From contig JAFEDD010000019.1 of assembly GCA_018241765.1 (NCBI GenBank), positions 76,761 to 140,760 of the forward strand: a DNA stretch of 64,000 bases. The letters are read 5' to 3'. A model generated the notes under the pieces. That model was not told the DNA's origin and made no database searches. It saw nothing but the letters and a program-made list of their open reading frames with translations. The translations under genes and the position numbers were made by a program. The stretch comes from Pseudomonadota bacterium (GTDB taxonomy: Bacteria > Pseudomonadota > Gammaproteobacteria > Burkholderiales > Casimicrobiaceae). Below are positions 57,201 to 64,000 of the stretch, one piece after another (position 1 is the first letter of the stretch; each line of letters starts with the position of its first letter).

Positions 57201-57929
57201 ATGCTTGTCATCCCGGCCATTGATCTCAAAGACGGTCATTGCGTTCGCCTTCGTCAGGGCGACATGGACAACGTCACCGTGTTCTCCGAAGACCCGGCGC
57301 AGATGGCGCGCCACTGGGTCGATCAGGGCGCCACGCGGCTGCATCTGGTCGACCTGAACGGCGCCTTCGCCGGCAAGCCGGTCAATGAGGCCGCGATCAA
57401 GTCGATCCTTGCCGAAGTCGGCGAAGACATCGACGTGCAACTCGGCGGCGGCATTCGCGACCTCGACATCATCGAGCGCTACCTCGACGACGGCATCAAC
57501 TACGTCATCATCGGCACCGCCGCCGTGAAGAACCCCGGCTTCCTGCACGACGCCTGCAATGCCTTCCCCGGCGCGGTCATCGTCGGCCTCGACGCCAAGG
57601 ACGGCAAGGTCGCCACCGACGGCTGGAGCAAGCTCACCGGCCACGACGCGCTCGACCTCGGCCGACGCTTCGAGGACTACGGCATCGAAGGCATCATCTA
57701 CACCGACATCGGTCGCGACGGCATGGGCACCGGCATCAACATCGAAGCCACCGTGCGCCTCGCGCAGCCGCTGCGCGTGCCGGTCTACGCGTCCGGCGGC
57801 ATTCACGACGTCGAACACATCAAACTGCTCAAGCCCTACCAAGCCGACGGCATCGCGGGCGTCGTCTGCGGACGCGCGCTCTACGAGGGCACGCTCGACT
57901 TCAAGGCGGCGGTGGCGGCGCTGGCCTGA
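57201..57929 (+). CDS. hisA: ProFAR isomerase
   Basis: 242-aa HisA, isomerising ProFAR to PRFAR on an eightfold beta/alpha barrel. The catalytic Asp8 is in PAIDLKDG and the second in [18 protein letters not shown] and [12 protein letters not shown] are phosphate-binding. This is the complete copy. From base 57225 to about 57975 it is repeated at 61373-62122. Confidence 0.96.
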
Positions 57930-57989
57930 GGGGTGAGCCGCAGCGCGCTGCGTGATGGCCGCTCGCGCTCATCGAGTTGTGTGTGTCAA

Positions 57990-58203
57990 GTTGTGCAAAT
58001 TGATGTTCTGGTAATCGGTCGTCCTGTTTGCGCTCGACTATGCCGTTGGTCTGCGGAGTTCGGCGTCGGGTCAGACGGTGCTCGATGCCTAGCGCGTGAC
58101 AAAACCGATCGAATTCATGCGCGCCGCTGGCCTCGCGCTCGCGTCGGGCAAAAAGCCGATCGGTGAACTCCTTGCCGTTGTCGGTCAGCACTTTGGTGAT
58201 CAT
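57990..58203 (-). pseudogene. IS481-type transposase remnant
   Basis: On the - strand the frame encodes KVLTDNGKEFTDRLF, HEFDRFCHALGIEHRLTR and RTPQTNGIVER, the middle of an rve-type DDE catalytic core of IS481-family transposases. The upstream part is missing. After VER the homology is lost, probably by a frameshift. The remnant starts about 25 bases after the end of the hisA-duplicated segment. Bases 58204-58336 show nothing recognisable. Confidence 0.75.
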
Positions 58204-58336
58204 GATGGGACAGGCCGTACGCGCGAGCCCGAACGTCGGACGCGAGGTAGTGTGTTTCCGTGGCGGACTTCACACCTCACGGGGTTGGCATTGTCTTCTG
58301 TCCACGAGCGACGGCGATCATGCGGATGCGGAATAG

Positions 58337-58714
58337 TTACGGCCGTGCAAACTCGAGAATCTCCTGTCCCATCAGGACGCAGGTATCCGAAATTGGGGCG
58401 TAGATGAAGCGCATGCGGTAGGTTGCCTTGTAAACATAGCCATCGACACCGAGCACGCTGAAACGCTGCTTCGTATCGGCCGGATTCCTGATGGACGGCA
58501 ACGCGCGAACCTCACGTGCGATCGCGCCGTTCGATGTTTCCGCGTGCAGCGCCAATAGCTTGGCGGCGCGCTCGCGTGCATCGCCTGCGCAGCGCGGTTC
58601 GCTCGTCGCAGCCACACCTTGTGTTACGGGTGAGGCGACCAACATGAACATGAGAAATACCGCCTGTGCAGGCGAGGGAAGTGCGCGAAAGGATGCCAGT
58701 GGAGTTGCATTCAT
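58337..58714 (-). CDS. Putative periplasmic immunity protein
   Basis: 125-aa exported protein of unknown family. A signal peptide covers about 1-36 (cleavage near VAA), and two cysteines remain in the mature part (Cys42 and Cys112), a possible disulfide. It overlaps the end of the GH19-like effector gene by ATGA, so the two are translated together. A secreted small protein coupled to a peptidoglycan hydrolase is the usual form of an immunity gene; this is inference, as no known immunity domain is recognised. Confidence 0.6.
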   Translation of the reverse strand: MNATPLASFRALPSPAQAVFLMFMLVASPVTQGVAATSEPRCAGDARERAAKLLALHAETSNGAIAREVRALPSIRNPADTKQRFSVLGVDGYVYKATYRMRFIYAPISDTCVLMGQEILEFARP

Positions 58715-59727
58715 TTGCGTTGCCTCGGTTTGCCCTTGGTTGTCGTGTTCGCCCGTTGTGAAACGACGATTCCAAGGAAATTTCTGCCAGCGGAGAATGC
58801 GCGGATGAAACCAGTCAGTCCGTGGCTGCCGCCGTTTACCAACCGCCGTGCCGTCCGAAGGTCATTTTCGCTCAGCGCGTGTCGAATCGCAGTCTCATGA
58901 TTTTTCAAAAATTGCGCCAATATTTTTGAGGCGATTATGGGGTCATTGGCAAGTTCTGGATCTTGTTCAAGCGTAGCCCCCACTTGCGCACCAATATTGA
59001 TGTAGTTGCTTCTTCCAGTAAGTTGCACGAAACCGCGACCTTTCCATTTCGCGCCTTCTCCGTGGCCGTCTTGACCCAAATCAGTACGGTGGTCATACAG
59101 ATCAAACGCGTGGTGCCCTTCGCTCTTTATTGAGGATGTGTTGTATTTGGAAATGCCCTCGCTAATCGGCCGAAAAGACGCGCTCTCTGCCCGGATAGTT
59201 GCGAGCGCCATCATCAACATATCGGTATCATTAAGCGATTTGCTAGTCAATGCGGTGAGAATATTCGGAAGATGTACGCGAATGTTACCTGGCGTTGTTA
59301 ATCTTGCTGATTCGATATGCGTGAAGGTTTTTCCGTTGACAACAGTGCGCGCTTTTTTTCGTATCAGTCGGGTTATGTCCGCGCCACCTGGTACCATCAC
59401 CGCAGCGAGTTGGTATGCCTCCGCCGAAAGGGAACTTGCGACGGAGTTTTTGGTCGCGGCTGTGTGCGCCAGGAAACGAAATAAAGTATCATCGTTTTCG
59501 AGTTTTGCGTTGGGATCGGCAACGCCAAAGAAATACTGCCTTTCAATCGCATGGAGTGCATTGGCTACAGCAGCATCCCAGCTGCCGGTTAGCGGGATTT
59601 GATTAACCCCTGGAATCAAACCAATTATCGCGAGCTCATTGAGCAGCGTTCGAACGGTAAGCATATCTTCGGGAAGATTGGGCTGTCCCGGTCCAACCGT
59701 AGATTTGAGTGTAGCCGTTGTGCACAT
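58711..59727 (-). CDS. GH19-like peptidoglycan hydrolase, putative type VI effector
   Basis: 338-aa protein without signal peptide. The N-terminal ~85 residues match a peptidoglycan-binding fold (VGPGQPNLPEDMLTVRTLLN at 11-30). Residues ~150-325 are a GH19/lysozyme-like domain: ALATIRAESASF with the likely catalytic Glu181, SEGISKYNTS with Glu190, FDLYDHRTDLG, and KWKGRGFVQLTGRSNYI at 228-244. Lack of a signal peptide together with a coupled secreted partner gene suggests an antibacterial effector delivered by type VI secretion. No T6SS structural gene is in the window, and a phage-type endolysin origin is possible. Base composition is lower in G+C than in the his genes. Confidence 0.75.
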   Translation of the reverse strand: MCTTATLKSTVGPGQPNLPEDMLTVRTLLNELAIIGLIPGVNQIPLTGSWDAAVANALHAIERQYFFGVADPNAKLENDDTLFRFLAHTAATKNSVASSLSAEAYQLAAVMVPGGADITRLIRKKARTVVNGKTFTHIESARLTTPGNIRVHLPNILTALTSKSLNDTDMLMMALATIRAESASFRPISEGISKYNTSSIKSEGHHAFDLYDHRTDLGQDGHGEGAKWKGRGFVQLTGRSNYINIGAQVGATLEQDPELANDPIIASKILAQFLKNHETAIRHALSENDLRTARRLVNGGSHGLTGFIRAFSAGRNFLGIVVSQRANTTTKGKPRQRK

Positions 59728-59929
59728 CGATTTGTTTGTTCCGAAAATAAGGCGAAGAAGTGGCCTCGCGCATCAACACAAAAAACCCGACCGTTAAGGG
59801 GAACTCGGAAGGTCGCGTGAGGGTGTGGCGTTATCCACAGAGCGCACGAAAACTCGTTGTGTCGAGCTCGTTTCGTGCGCCCTCGCGGGTAACGCGGGGC
59901 ACGCCAGTTCGGTTCATTCTATGCAGCCG

Positions 59930-60330
59930 CCGCCAGCATCCGTTGCGCCTGCTTGTGTCGTGAATCATCATAGGCTTGCTTTGGCGTCCCATCTTGTTCG
60001 TTGGACGAATGCGGTCGACGCTCGTTGTACCAGCCGATGTGCTCGGCCACGTCGATCACGGCGGTGAGGTAGGCGCAGCCGTGGCGCATCGGGATGTAGG
60101 TCGTGTCCAGTGCCCACAGCGTGTTGGCTTCGATTCGACTCAGATCAACGCCACCGAGCAGGTAGGGGAACGCTTGGTGCCGTGGGCCGCGCCCGCGCTG
60201 GCTGGTGCCGGGCTTGGGGCACTATGCCTCAATGTCCATGCGCCGCATGAGCGTGCGGACGTGCTTGCGTCCCAAGGGGTGTTGCGCGATCCACGGCGGG
60301 ATCGATGCGTCACGCAAGAGCAAGCGCAAG
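59930..60330 (-). pseudogene. IS3-family transposase remnant
   Basis: On the - strand the sequence reads GRKHVRTLMRRMDIEA, an in-frame stop, then PGTSQRG, FPYLLGG, NTLWALDTTYIPMRHG and YLTAVIDV. It then jumps to HIGWYNERRPHSSN and TPKQAYDD. These are parts of an IS3-family OrfB with the middle of the DDE domain deleted. The 5' side is cut by the REP at 60346. Bases 59728-59929, between the effector gene and this remnant, show no gene. Confidence 0.75.
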
Positions 60331-60345
60331 AGATCGCGAGCAAGT

Positions 60346-60664
60346 GTAGCCTCGATGCAACGAAGTGGAATCGAGGGCTCTGTGGCGCGCCATTGACCGT
60401 GTCGGCGATTCGCTCAGCGACCGCAGGCGCTTGGTCGCGCCAGAGAAGCCGGCGCCGTTTGGCGGCAGCGATTGGAAGAAGGGGATTGTTGCTGGGTTGG
60501 GCGGCGTGTGTCCCGCCGCTTGCGTTGCAACCTACGCCTTCCGGCAACGCTCCGAGCGCCGCTTCGGCTTTCGGGGTTCGCTATCTTGCTGACTCGGGCA
60601 TCTTCTCACGCACAAAATGCCTGACGTGCTCCCTCGATTCCACATCGTTGCATCGAGGCTACGT
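60346..60664. repeat. Inverted REP pair with conserved core, copy 3
   Basis: REPs at 60346-60376 (+) and 60634-60664 (-; one stem-loop change, ACATCG) flank about 257 bp. Its core matches the reverse complement of the cores at 7748-8010 and 9052-9314 over most of their length (GACCGTGTCGGCGATTCGCT is shared exactly). It has about 60 extra bases before the right REP. Confidence 0.82.
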
Positions 60665-60671
60665 TGGCTGC

Positions 60672-61041
60672 GCCGCCACCTTGGCCGATTCGCTGCTCGC
60701 CGCGATCTCCGCCCGGGTGGCGGGATCATGTTCGCCACGGGTAAGTTGGCTGTTCTCGTTGATTGGCGCGGCTTGTACGGCAACTTTCACGTCCGGACGC
60801 CGTTTGCGCGTCGCTTGCACGCTGGCGATGTCCATTGATGCGCATACAACACATTGATTGACATGCACAATTTCGTCTGCGAGGCCCGCGACGCACTTTC
60901 TTCATGATTTCAGGTCGACTTTGGCCGTATTTCGGGCTCTAAGCCCGTTATGGATGCGCCTCCCAGCATCGAGCTGTATCGCACGCACAGTCCATTCCGC
61001 GGACGAGCGGCCAGGGGCGCGTTGCAGCAACCGTTGCGACC
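60672..61041. repeat. Segment shared with island 1 (9315-9677)
   Basis: Diverged second copy of the 9315-9677 segment, again placed between a right-facing REP and a + REP, and again with a half GTCGACTTT palindrome (60911-60978) and a conserved 69-codon - strand frame (60659-60868). Confidence 0.65.
60911..60978. repeat. GTCGACTTT palindrome family, half copy E
   Basis: Core GTCGACTTT near 60913 and the right arm CTAAGCCCGTTATGGATGCG from about 60939; the left arm is missing, as in half copy D. Confidence 0.7.
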
Positions 61042-61367
61042 GTAGCCTCGATGCAACGAAGTGGAATCGAGGGCCGCCGCCGCCCGCCCACGACCGTGTC
61101 GACGACTTACGCAACGACCGCAAGCGATGGGTCATGGCGCAGAAGTCCGGGCCGCTTTGCGGCAACGATTAGCGAAGGCGGGATGGTTGCTGGGTTGGGT
61201 GTCGTGGAACGCGCCCCGCGCGCGTTGCAACGCCACGCCTTCAGGCTACGCGCCGAGCACCGCTTGGGCTTTCGGGGTTCGCTGTCCTGCCGACTGAGGC
61301 AACTTCTCTCTCGCGCACAAAATGCCTGACGTGCTCCCTCGATTCCACTTCGTTGCATCGAGGCTAC
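61042..61367. repeat. Inverted REP pair with conserved core, copy 4
   Basis: REPs at 61042-61072 (+) and 61337-61367 (-). The core is alignable with copy 3, including an identical CGCACAAAATGCCTGACGTG just before the right REP. The sequence derived from hisA begins within six bases of the right REP. Confidence 0.85.
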
Positions 61368-61372
61368 GCTGG

Positions 61373-62122
61373 CTCAGAGACGATCATTGCGTTCGCCTTC
61401 GTCAGGGCGACATGGACAACGTCACCGTGTTCTCCGAAGACCCGGCGCAGATGGCGCGCCACTGGGTCGATCAGGGCGCCACGCGGCTGCATCTGGTCGA
61501 CCTGAACGGCGCCTTCGCCGGCAAGCCGGTCAATGAGGCCGCGATCAAGTCGATTCTTGCCGAAGTCGGCGAAGACATCGACGTGCAACTCGGCGGCGGC
61601 ATTCGCGACCTCGACATCATCGAGCGCTACCTCGACGACGGCATCAACTACGTCATCATCGGCACTGCCGCCGTGAAGAACCCCGGCTTCCTGCACGACG
61701 CCTGCAATGCCTTCCCCGGCGCGGTCATCGTTGGCCTCGACGCCAAGGACGGCAAGGTCGCCACCGACGGCTGGAGCAAGCTCACCGGCCACGACGCGCT
61801 CGACCTCGGCCGACGCTTCGAGGATTACGGCATCGAAGGCATCATCTACACCGACATCGGCCGCGACGGCATGGGCACCGGCATCAACATCGAAGCCACC
61901 GTGCGCCTCGCGCAGCCGCTGCGCGTGCCGGTCTACGCGTCCGGCGGCATTCACGACGTCGAACACATCAAACTGCTCAAGCCCTACCAAGCCGACGGCA
62001 TCGCGGGCGTGGTCTGCGGACGCGCGCTCTATGAGGGCACGCTCGACTTCAAGGCGGCGGTGGCGGCGCTGGCCTGAGGGGTGAGCCGCAGCGCGGTGCG
62101 TGATGGCGCTCGCGCTCATCGG
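61373..62122 (+). pseudogene. Second, 5'-truncated hisA
   Basis: Repeats 57225-57975: hisA from codon 9 to the stop plus about 45 bases beyond. I count seven coding differences after the first few codons, all silent third-position changes. An in-frame ATG at 61322 inside the REP pair would give a 251-aa hybrid whose first 19 residues come from the repeat. That hybrid has Trp where the catalytic Asp8 should be, so it should be inactive as an isomerase. The frame is otherwise fully open. Confidence 0.9.
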
Positions 62123-62290: not shown

Positions 62291-62659
62291 CTACTTGGTG
62301 CGCGATAGTTTGCCCGCGAGCTCGTCCAACTCTTTGCTGTTGAACAGGTCGATACATTTCATGGTGTTCAGCCTTGAGCCTGAGACGCTTCCGTAATTCA
62401 GCTTCGCATACCGGATGGCTAGTTCATCGAGCTTTTCATAAGCCTCCATCGGCTGCTTGCCACGCTCCAGGTAAGCGGCAGCCGAGGCATTGGCATCGTC
62501 TTTGGACGTCTGATCCGAGTACGCCTCCGCGAGGCAGCGAGTCACCGCCCAATTCTTCAGCAAGGCCTTTTGCGAGTACTTGGGCGGCAGTTCACCCGCG
62601 ACCGACGTGGCGGACATGATGGCAAGAGTGACGGCGAGCTGGATATCTCGCGCAGTCAT
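62291..62659 (-). CDS. tai4: Type VI amidase immunity protein Tai4
   Basis: 122-aa periplasmic Tai4-family protein that neutralises the Tae4 amidase. The signal peptide spans about 1-22. The mature part shows the family pattern: KNWAVTRCLAEAYSD, SAAAYLERG and NTMKCIDLFNSKELDELAGKL, with Cys residues in RCLAE and KCIDL. The ATG overlaps the tae4 stop (ATGA), giving effector-immunity coupling. Confidence 0.88.
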   Translation of the reverse strand: MTARDIQLAVTLAIMSATSVAGELPPKYSQKALLKNWAVTRCLAEAYSDQTSKDDANASAAAYLERGKQPMEAYEKLDELAIRYAKLNYGSVSGSRLNTMKCIDLFNSKELDELAGKLSRTK

Positions 62660-63156
62660 GGCAACACCCAGATCGAAGCGGTGTCCGGAACGAATGTTCC
62701 ATTCTCTGGATCATTGAGCAAATGACACGTGTCAGAACATCCCGAACCGTCCCACAGCGTGACGTGCCCTTTGGCGTCTCGCCAACCGTGACCACGAACA
62801 ACCAAAATGCCTTGCAGATTCGCAAATGCCGCAGGGGAAGGGGATTTGGCCGTTTTATCTGGGTTCCCGAATGATTTTTCCCGCTGGTCCATCATGTCGC
62901 TGACCCTAAACAGATAGCGCTTTCCGTCCGCACCACTCACGGTTGGGTGTTGGTTTGTCTTGATGAGATGCCCAGTTGAATTGAGCACATAGCTCATACG
63001 TATTGGGCAGGCATTTGTGAACACTTTGGAATCGATGTTCTGTTGAACTTTCCCACCAATCTTCTGGCCGACCTGCGCAACCGGCACACGAACAGGCTGA
63101 AATGCGACCCAAGCATTGTGAAATTTTGGGCGTTCCGCCTTGGCTCTTTTCGACAT
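62656..63156 (-). CDS. tae4: Type VI amidase effector Tae4
   Basis: 166-aa NlpC/P60-like peptidoglycan amidase of the Tae4 family. These cut the D-Glu/mDAP bond of peptide stems in target cells after T6SS delivery. The catalytic Cys50 is in NACPIRMSYVLN, His131 in GHVTLWDG, and an Asp at 142 has the spacing of the family triad; Cys140 and Cys144 could form the known disulfide. RGHGW precedes the His. ATG 63156 is chosen for its AAGGA six bases upstream and its fit to the family N-terminus. There is no signal peptide, as expected for an effector. Confidence 0.9.
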   Translation of the reverse strand: MSKRAKAERPKFHNAWVAFQPVRVPVAQVGQKIGGKVQQNIDSKVFTNACPIRMSYVLNSTGHLIKTNQHPTVSGADGKRYLFRVSDMMDQREKSFGNPDKTAKSPSPAAFANLQGILVVRGHGWRDAKGHVTLWDGSGCSDTCHLLNDPENGTFVPDTASIWVLP

Positions 63157-63195
63157 AACCATCCTTTTCGATAATGGTGTGGAGGGTTTTCTGGC

Positions 63196-63255
63196 GCGTA
63201 ACGGTCCATATAGGCTGCCCGGCGTCGGCGGGTCGGCTCGAGCGCAGAGTTGGAC
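63196..63255 (-). other. Possible attC-like site between ydjM-type gene and tae4
   Basis: A 60-bp stretch bounded by GCGTAAC and GTTGGAC. The second fits the GTTRRRY core of integron attC sites and the first fits RYYYAAC with one mismatch. The inside has partial palindromy (GGTCC/GGACC, CCCG/CGGG). It follows the stop of the upstream gene by about 43 bases, where an attC would lie in a cassette. No integrase gene is seen. Confidence 0.25.
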
Positions 63256-63298
63256 CGAAGGCCAAAAGGGAGCGCCCTGACCTGGAGACGGGCGCGAA

Positions 63299-63856
63299 CT
63301 ACGCATGGCGATGTCCTGATGTCGTGGCGCGGTGATAAAGCAAGCGAGCGCCTAAAAGGGCGGCGCCGCAGAATAGGCAAGGCAACCACACCCAAAGCAA
63401 CTCTGAAAAAAGAACTTCTACACCCTTTGGTCCAAAGACGCGACGAAGACTCAACGGGGAGACTTCGATGACTTGCCATGGAAGGAAGAAGCGCTCGCCT
63501 GACGCGGGCCACCACAAGGCAACGCCGTGTCCTCCGTTGGTGAGCATGTCAAGTAAGCCGTGTGAAGCCGCGGAGATTGCGGTGAAGGCGAACGCCAAGC
63601 ACCGAGTGGTATGTAGACGTGACGCGATTAGCGATGCGATAAGCCCAAGAAGCAAGGCAAGAGCTAACGAGTGCGATGCACCGCGATGGCCGAAGGAGTC
63701 GGCGTAGGGGATGCCGAAGCGAAAAGCCAAAACGTCTAGGTCTGGCAGCACCGATGCCACCAACCCAGTTGCGAGTAGGCGAGGTGAAACCGCCTGCTTA
63801 CCTAGACCCAGGCGCAATGCCAGGGGAGCAGCTATATGGGAGAAGACGGTTGGCAT
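63299..63856 (-). CDS. YdjM/YbcI-type (DUF457) membrane-bound metal-dependent hydrolase
   Basis: 185-aa inner-membrane protein with four to five hydrophobic segments. Conserved His/Asp positions are FSHIAAP, LPDLDVLAFRF, GHRGASHSLA and HGLLDMLTNGGHG, the YdjM (DUF457) pattern. The family is described as LexA-regulated or metal-dependent hydrolase-like; the reaction is not known. It lies between a tae4 fragment upstream and tae4 downstream, all on the - strand. Confidence 0.85.
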   Translation of the reverse strand: MPTVFSHIAAPLALRLGLGKQAVSPRLLATGLVASVLPDLDVLAFRFGIPYADSFGHRGASHSLALALLLGLIASLIASRLHTTRCLAFAFTAISAASHGLLDMLTNGGHGVALWWPASGERFFLPWQVIEVSPLSLRRVFGPKGVEVLFSELLWVWLPCLFCGAALLGARLLYHRATTSGHRHA

Positions 63857-63879
63857 TGAGAAAAGCCTGACAAAAAATG

Positions 63880-64000
63880 CATTTCAGTTTCGCGAATGCG
63901 GCTGGGGGAGGGGATTTAACCGCTTTGTCTGGATTGCCGAATGATTCTTCCGGGTAGGCCATCATCTCGCTGACCTTAGTGCAGTGTTTCGCTCTTCTTG
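63880..64000 (-). pseudogene. Second tae4, fragment running off the right edge
   Basis: The - strand frame encodes KVSEMMAYPEESFGNPDK and SPPPAAFAKLK, aligned with VSDMMDQREKSFGNPDK and SPSPAAFANLQ of the complete Tae4. Homology stops abruptly after AFAKLK, before the RGHGW and catalytic His part, where the upstream region of the ydjM-type gene begins. The 5' part lies outside the window. Confidence 0.75.

What the first reader, a model, noticed from the sequence alone, without database searches (positions are those of the whole stretch)
57225..62122. Island 2 sits between a complete hisA and a REP-joined, nearly full second hisA
The second hisA copy lacks only codons 1-8, is joined directly to a REP, and differs from the first by silent changes only (seven that I count). 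Silent-only divergence means the copy was under selection as a working gene before truncation. It is therefore more likely an allele brought in from a relative than a decayed tandem duplicate. A single-crossover integration of circular DNA carrying a 5'-truncated hisA next to a REP gives exactly one complete and one truncated gene flanking the insert.
Basis: partly seen in the sequence, partly recalled or inferred. Interest (0 to 1): 0.8.

Follow-up and report, generated by a model that had tools for sequence, protein, structure and literature searches.

The report
Antibacterial gene islands stacked beside hisA
In this environmental bacterium a block carrying antibacterial-looking genes lies between a working hisA gene and a recent, almost complete but probably dead second hisA, which looks like the scar left when DNA from a close strain was inserted next to an older set of such genes; the genes are of known kinds, the scar is the interesting part.

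Summary
hisA1 is complete; hisA2 starts at codon 9, at the edge of a 1,037-bp REP composite found elsewhere in the genome. Codons 13-242 differ at seven sites, all silent; two replacements (codons 10, 12) sit at the joint. All 15 same-genus genomes with a readable hisA have one full copy.

The copies are sisters (98/94), at most 91% identical to held relatives, so import from another lineage is not shown. About six of seven changes lie on the truncated copy, yet are silent: it diverged as a working allele, most simply in a strain of the same species. It lacks conserved Asp8 and is probably dead.

The surroundings matter more. hisA1-hisA2 holds a GH19-like wall hydrolase and possible immunity gene; hisA2-hisF holds Tai4/Tae4, a Tlde1-domain gene and remnants. 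The genome has type VI genes. Best reading (0.5): two alternative islands stacked by one crossover in hisA plus one illegitimate joint at the REP edge. Assembly chimerism (0.2) is the main rival. New variant of a known kind.

The parts
57201..57929 (+). hisA1, complete gene (242 aa), after hisC-, hisB- and hisH-like genes
   Evidence: ORF list; Pfam His_biosynth 3.5e-79, IGPD, GATase, Aminotran_1_2; the names hisC and hisH rest on domain plus position
57930..57974 (+). 45-bp 3' flank shared with hisA2
   Evidence: alignment
57979..58220 (-). IS481-type transposase remnant and its end, start of the insert
   Evidence: NCBIfam IS481 3.9e-17, 62.7 bits, model positions 189-238 of 284, far below its cut-off of 224; 9 of 10 listed plasmid matches fall here
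58337..58714 (-). small protein (125 aa) with a signal-like N terminus (by eye), overlapping the GH19 gene; possible immunity protein (inferred)
   Evidence: ORF; no Pfam family; role by position only
58711..59727 (-). GH19-like peptidoglycan hydrolase (338 aa), possible antibacterial effector
   Evidence: Pfam Glyco_hydro_19 3.1e-5, 24.3 bits, just under the cut-off of 25.5
59930..60240 (-). transposase remnant with stops (IS3-like by eye, not tested by HMM)
   Evidence: three-frame translation
60339..61375 (.). REP composite of 1,037 bp (two ~340-bp REP-bounded units plus a ~360-bp middle); full-length copies elsewhere in the genome
   Evidence: repeats; C72 89%, C2 90% and 88%
61333..61365 (.). 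terminal REP (GTAG-type palindrome), outer edge at the hisA2 joint
   Evidence: 63 matches to a query from this REP in the own genome, itself included; most end at window 61374-61375
61373..61385 (+). joint: REP edge to hisA codons 9-13, 9 of 11 bases matching hisA beyond the REP edge
61373..62077 (+). hisA2, codons 9-242, lacks the conserved Asp8; open frame runs into the REP
62078..62122 (+). second copy of the 3' flank; shared sequence ends here
62291..62659 (-). Tai4 immunity protein family member (122 aa)
   Evidence: Pfam Tai4 5.9e-18, above cut-off
62656..63306 (-). Tae4 amidase effector family member (216 aa)
   Evidence: Pfam Tae4 7.1e-18, above cut-off
63299..63856 (-). YdjM-family membrane protein
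   Evidence: Pfam YdjM 2.6e-25
63874..63978 (-). remnant of a second tae4 (81% over 105 nt), before a repeat that holds the N gap
   Evidence: family D3 (L004:8635-8739)

Best explanation
Two alternative accessory islands that sat at the same place (between hisA and hisF) in two strains of one species have been stacked in tandem in this genome. Incoming DNA carried hisA with its downstream cargo (GH19-like hydrolase, possible immunity gene, IS remnants, REP composite). One end entered by ordinary homologous recombination inside hisA. The other end, at the outer edge of the REP composite, was joined illegitimately near codon 9 of hisA, helped by short imperfect homology. That leaves one complete hisA upstream and one 5'-truncated hisA downstream, followed by the older island (Tai4/Tae4, YdjM, Tlde1-domain gene, remnants) and hisF. 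The route could be linear transforming DNA, or a fragment that first circularised by end joining and then integrated by a single crossover; I cannot choose between them. hisA1 supplies the enzyme; hisA2 is a recent fossil. Shown: the anatomy, silent-only divergence past the joint, single hisA in relatives, type VI genes in the genome. Inferred: conspecific donor, order of events, the joint mechanism, and that the cargo proteins are type VI effectors with immunity.
For: Seven of seven differences in codons 13-242 are silent (P 5e-5 to 2.7e-4 without constraint). Polarised against 15 relatives, four are clearly derived in hisA2, two probably, one in hisA1; branches 0.0085 and 0.0015. Single full-length hisA in 15 of 15 readable same-genus genomes; hisF next to it in 13 (gap about 12-791 bp in 11, 2.65 and 3.07 kb in 2), 2 end at contig ends. 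Both copies share the same 45-bp flank and then diverge into different islands, as expected of two alleles of one locus. The joint carries 9 of 11 bases matching hisA; 11 of 63,989 11-mers of the window do as well, the joint and hisA1 themselves included. The region past hisA2 has remnants of another tae4 (81%) and ydjM (93%), so stacking has probably happened before. On C35 an intact-looking Tai4 (129.6 bits) lies beside a broken tae4, as when an effector is lost and its immunity kept. Type VI genes and ComEC- and DprA-family genes are present. Precedents: one-ended integration with partial duplication (PMC3240628, passages); effector-immunity stacking, with illegitimate recombination proposed (PMC5361080, passages).
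Against: No strain with either island alone is held, so the two alleles were not seen apart. The copies are sisters among held relatives. Homology-facilitated illegitimate recombination generally leaves deletions, not duplications (PMC3240628). The first 171 bp of codons 13-242 have no difference, as predicted if the crossover lay there, but this is weak (P 0.14). The assembly is fragmented (76 contigs, 90% complete, 4% contamination), with an N gap 1.9 kb after hisA2. ComEC and DprA families are also found in 10 and 11 of 14 control genomes, E. coli among them, so they do not show competence. The GH19 hit is just below the Pfam cut-off; its two close relatives carry wall-binding or peptidase domains, no type VI domain, so nothing ties it to type VI secretion.
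Confidence: 0.5

Rival explanations
1. Assembly chimera: two strains in the sequenced population carry different islands next to hisA, and their contigs were joined at the REP repeat, so no cell has both hisA copies.
For: Two functional-looking alleles, a joint at a repeat with 63 matches in this genome, a fragmented draft and an N gap nearby inside another dispersed repeat are what a strain mixture would give.
Against: The joint is continuous and carries two bases that differ from hisA1 just past the REP edge; REP and hisA share no long exact word there, which a graph assembler would need (inference). A true strain-2 hisA would have a full 5' end, not a REP at codon 9. Besides the two copies only one weak 56-bp match exists in the assembly.
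Confidence: 0.2
2. In-place tandem duplication: hisA plus downstream DNA was duplicated in this lineage with a breakpoint at the REP, and the copy then drifted.
For: Copies are sisters at 99%; dispersed REP composites can promote rearrangement (general knowledge).
Against: About six changes fall on the truncated copy and all are silent; drift should give about 69-76% replacements. Sequence after the two copies differs beyond 45 bp, so the duplicated unit would have to lose or replace its cargo.
Confidence: 0.12
3. Disruption then rescue: the REP composite first inserted in hisA at codon 9; later an intact hisA with the GH19 cargo was imported by recombination in flanking hisH and in the REP composite, restoring the gene.
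For: The joint lies at the outer edge of a repeat found full length elsewhere; a related unit lies within an IS30-like frame on C35 (IS30 by eye).
Against: Needs a histidine-requiring intermediate; no target-site duplication was evident in the flanks printed and no empty site was seen; two replacements within 11 bp of the joint suggest an imprecise join (P 0.01 for two or more of nine changes in the first 12 bp).
Confidence: 0.12
4. hisA2 is still used: the open frame starting in the REP (61322-62077, 251 aa) makes a selected protein, which is why changes are silent.
For: The frame is open from an ATG in the REP; all changes beyond the joint are silent; Pfam still finds the HisA domain.
Against: It lacks codons 1-8 with Asp8, which is present in 15 of 15 same-genus and 78 of 78 other HisA loci checked; that Asp8 is catalytic and that the first barrel strand is lost is recalled.
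Confidence: 0.04

Closest known systems
Sequential displacement of type VI effector-immunity modules (Vibrio cholerae; PMC5361080, passages read)
   Same: New effector-immunity DNA added beside older modules, older ones partly kept as remnants or orphan immunity genes; one homologous plus one illegitimate end was suggested there
   Different: Here the stack lies in the histidine operon, outside the type VI cluster, and the homologous arm is a housekeeping gene left as a truncated duplicate
Single-crossover integration of a circle lacking part of its homologous end, and homology-facilitated illegitimate recombination (PMC3240628, passages read)
   Same: One homologous crossover plus an illegitimate joint; the circle route left a partly duplicated gene; 3-10 bp micro-homology is usual at the illegitimate joint
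   Different: Laboratory plasmids selected in E. coli; here inferred from sequence, with a REP at the joint
REP / REPIN elements of the GTAG type (PMC3733652, PMC2817692, PMC3116915: search listing only)
   Same: GTAG followed by a palindrome, many copies, alternating orientation
   Different: The composite is about 1 kb, with ~340-bp REP-bounded units; no RAYT gene was looked for
Tae4/Tai4 and Tlde1 antibacterial effector families
   Same: Pfam domains above cut-off
   Different: Lie in the his operon on C10, whereas the type VI genes found are on C64

Membership tests
Tae4/Tai4 effector-immunity pair | Tae4 and Tai4 domains above the curated cut-off in adjacent genes | tested here: met
   PF14113 65.3 bits (cut-off 27), PF16695 65.7 bits (cut-off 27.1), adjacent on the minus strand
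Tae4/Tai4 effector-immunity pair | Type VI machinery in the same genome | tested here: met
   VipB, VipA, TssF, ImpA_N, ImpE, a ClpB-type AAA protein, FHA C-terminal domain; completeness of the machinery not tested
Tae4/Tai4 effector-immunity pair | Secretion and killing/protection activity | not testable with these tools
   -
Tlde1 family | Tlde1 domain above cut-off | tested here: met
   PF10908 36.9 bits (cut-off 30.1), L004:9094-9594, beyond the window end
GH19 type VI effector | GH19 domain above cut-off | tested here: not met
   24.3 bits against 25.5; called GH19-like only
GH19 type VI effector | Link to type VI secretion (VgrG/PAAR neighbour or fusion) | tested here: inconclusive
   no type VI domain in the protein or in its two close relatives; wider neighbourhoods were fetched but not scanned
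Integrative element with site-specific integrase | Integrase gene and defined attachment site | tested here: not met
   among four insert ORFs scanned only a transposase piece (rve) and the GH19-like protein had domains; no phage match; best listed plasmid match covers 6% of the query
One-ended homologous/illegitimate integration | One whole and one truncated homologous copy flanking the insert | tested here: met
One-ended homologous/illegitimate integration | Microhomology at the illegitimate joint | tested here: inconclusive
   9 of 11 bases match hisA but could be mutated hisA itself
GTAG-type REP | GTAG tag followed by a palindrome, high copy number | tested here: met
   GTAGCCTCGATGCAACGAAGTGGAATCGAGGGC; 63 matches to the query in the own genome, itself included

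The most novel reading that the evidence does not exclude
A housekeeping gene (hisA) serves as a recurrent homologous docking arm by which strains of a species add, rather than swap, antibacterial effector-immunity islands, so truncated hisA copies, broken modules and orphan immunity genes record successive additions: a fossil of the additive step that PMC5361080 (passages read) only proposes for effector-immunity arrays.
Probability: 0.2. Interest if true: 0.65.

Novelty: new variant of a known kind. Interest (0 to 1): 0.42.

Why it matters
In the V. cholerae work whose passages I read (PMC5361080), the addition of effector-immunity modules is inferred by comparing finished arrays. If the joint here is real, this locus preserves both ends of such an event: the homologous arm as a nearly intact second hisA and the illegitimate joint at a REP. 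That makes the additive model testable in a natural population and points to the hisA-hisF gap as a place where accessory genes can gather in this genus (gaps from about 12 bp to 3 kb in 13 relatives).

Tried and rejected
Import from another lineage: not supported by held data; hisA2 is no closer than hisA1 to most relatives, and the few gains are of one or two sites (hisA2 is nearer to G014 by one site and to G004 by two). Two rare states shared with G004 (codons 69, 106) are taken as chance convergence because G004 is 83% identical overall.

Other lineages with long hisA-hisF gaps: six named loci (four Variovorax, one Pelomonas, one Burkholderiaceae) were read for ORFs (six of the 80 loci); by eye they carry other genes, not effector pairs; no HMM was run on them. 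G011 and G007 carry a similar large protein; the G011 one was scanned and gave only a weak dockerin hit below cut-off (E 0.014).

Phage and plasmid origin: no phage match; 1,022 plasmid records match, none over 80% of the query, the best listed covering 6%; 9 of the 10 listed fall on the IS481 remnant.

GH19-like protein: 9 of 60 genomes matched, the own included; two matches are strong (E about 1e-48), six weak (6e-13 to 3.5e-5). The two strong ones were scanned; wider stretches around them and G005 were fetched and not scanned.

Target-site duplication of the REP composite: none evident among the flanks printed. Literature on a duplicated hisA beside an island: none recognised in the 12 listed of 17 hits; this does not prove absence. 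Searches were read as listings only, apart from PMC5361080.
Full report
What is there. The window is part of contig C10 of a 3.24-Mb draft genome in 76 contigs, 90% complete, 4% contamination. The nearest titled records by HisA are two Burkholderiales metagenome genomes (95 and 94% protein identity). The his genes run hisC-hisB-hisH-hisA1 (hisB by its IGPD domain, hisA by His_biosynth, hisC and hisH by domain plus position). hisF is not next to hisA1 but about 7.3 kb away, beyond the window end (L004:10002-10763). Between them lie a first insert (57975-61375), a second hisA (61373-62077) and a second accessory stretch up to hisF.

The two hisA copies. They align without gaps from codon 9 to the stop and share 45 bp beyond it. 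Codons 13-242 differ at seven sites, all silent; two replacement differences (codons 10 and 12) abut the joint. If changes were unconstrained, 25-31% would be silent, so seven of seven has P of 5e-5 to 2.7e-4. Sixteen same-genus genomes are held; 15 have a hisA, and G003 (85% complete) gave only a 31-bp hit. Against these 15, codons 69, 106, 128 and 159 are derived in hisA2, 221 is derived in hisA1, and 171 and 228 are probably derived in hisA2. A tree puts the copies together (98/94) with branches of 0.0015 (hisA1) and 0.0085 (hisA2). The truncated copy therefore most likely changed as a working gene before truncation, and truncation is recent. It lacks Asp8, present in 15 of 15 and 78 of 78 HisA loci checked; that Asp8 is catalytic in HisA is recalled, not tested here.

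The locus in relatives. All 15 have one full-length hisA. In 13, hisF follows: gap about 12 to 791 bp in 11, 2.65 kb in G011 and 3.07 kb in G007. In G008 and G010 the contig ends first. Tae4 occurs in 1 of 17 genus genomes, this one. The GH19-like protein matches in 9 of 60 genomes including its own: two strongly (G035, G058; E about 1e-48, 51-54% identity), six weakly.

Cargo. First insert: an IS481 remnant, a 125-aa protein overlapping a 338-aa GH19-like protein (24.3 bits against a cut-off of 25.5), a transposase remnant (IS3-like by eye), and the REP composite. Second stretch: Tai4 and Tae4 above cut-off, YdjM, a second tae4 remnant (81%) and a ydjM remnant (93%), and a Tlde1-domain protein above cut-off. 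The genome has type VI genes on C64. That the cargo is delivered by this system is inferred; for the GH19-like protein nothing but its wall-hydrolase domain points that way. The cargo genes are poorer in G+C (0.51-0.59) than the his genes (0.65-0.68). Elsewhere, on C35, a broken tae4 lies beside a Tai4 frame of 129.6 bits, an orphan-immunity arrangement like those described for V. cholerae (PMC5361080, passages).

The joint. A query from the terminal REP has 63 matches in this genome, itself included, most ending at its position 49-50, that is window 61374-61375. The 1,037-bp composite has full-length relatives on C72 and C2 (88-90%). Its edge meets hisA at codon 9, and the next 11 bases match hisA at 9 positions; 11 of 63,989 window 11-mers match as well, the joint and hisA1 included. 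Either the join was guided by short homology, or hisA itself was altered there.

Reading. The pattern (two alleles of one locus, each followed by a different island, one allele truncated at a repeat edge) is what one homologous crossover in hisA plus one illegitimate joint would leave. In E. coli, 56 of 60 analysed clones from cut incoming plasmid gave the PCR product diagnostic of a partial duplication of the homologous gene, read by the authors as single crossover of a circle that had lost part of its homologous end; homology-facilitated illegitimate recombination itself generally leaves deletions, with 3-10 bp micro-homology in most cases (PMC3240628, passages). For V. cholerae, addition of effector-immunity modules, perhaps by that route, was proposed (PMC5361080, passages). 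ComEC- and DprA-family genes are present but are found in 10 and 11 of 14 control genomes too, so competence is not shown.

Limits. No reads and no strain with a single island are available. A chimera of two strains' contigs could mimic much of this; the continuous joint and the missing 5' end argue against it but do not exclude it.

Noticed in passing
L004:8738-8861 (just past the window end): Short dispersed repeat with inverted ends (MITE-like) that holds the 33-N gap; the search with this region gave 46 matches besides itself, 45 of them to this repeat, several at contig ends.
   Followed up: partly
G000:C35:58080-58429 and L171:6439-6900: A second, broken tae4 beside a Tai4 frame (129.6 bits), with REP units nearby: a candidate orphan immunity gene.
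   Followed up: partly
   Followed up: no
hisA-hisF gaps of G005, G006, G002, G007: A similar small protein of about 80 aa lies just after hisA in four relatives (by eye); the G007 one has no Pfam family.
   Followed up: partly
C10:151462-151491: The contig ends in a 30-bp match (93%) to the IS end next to hisA1, as expected of a break at a multi-copy element.
   Followed up: no
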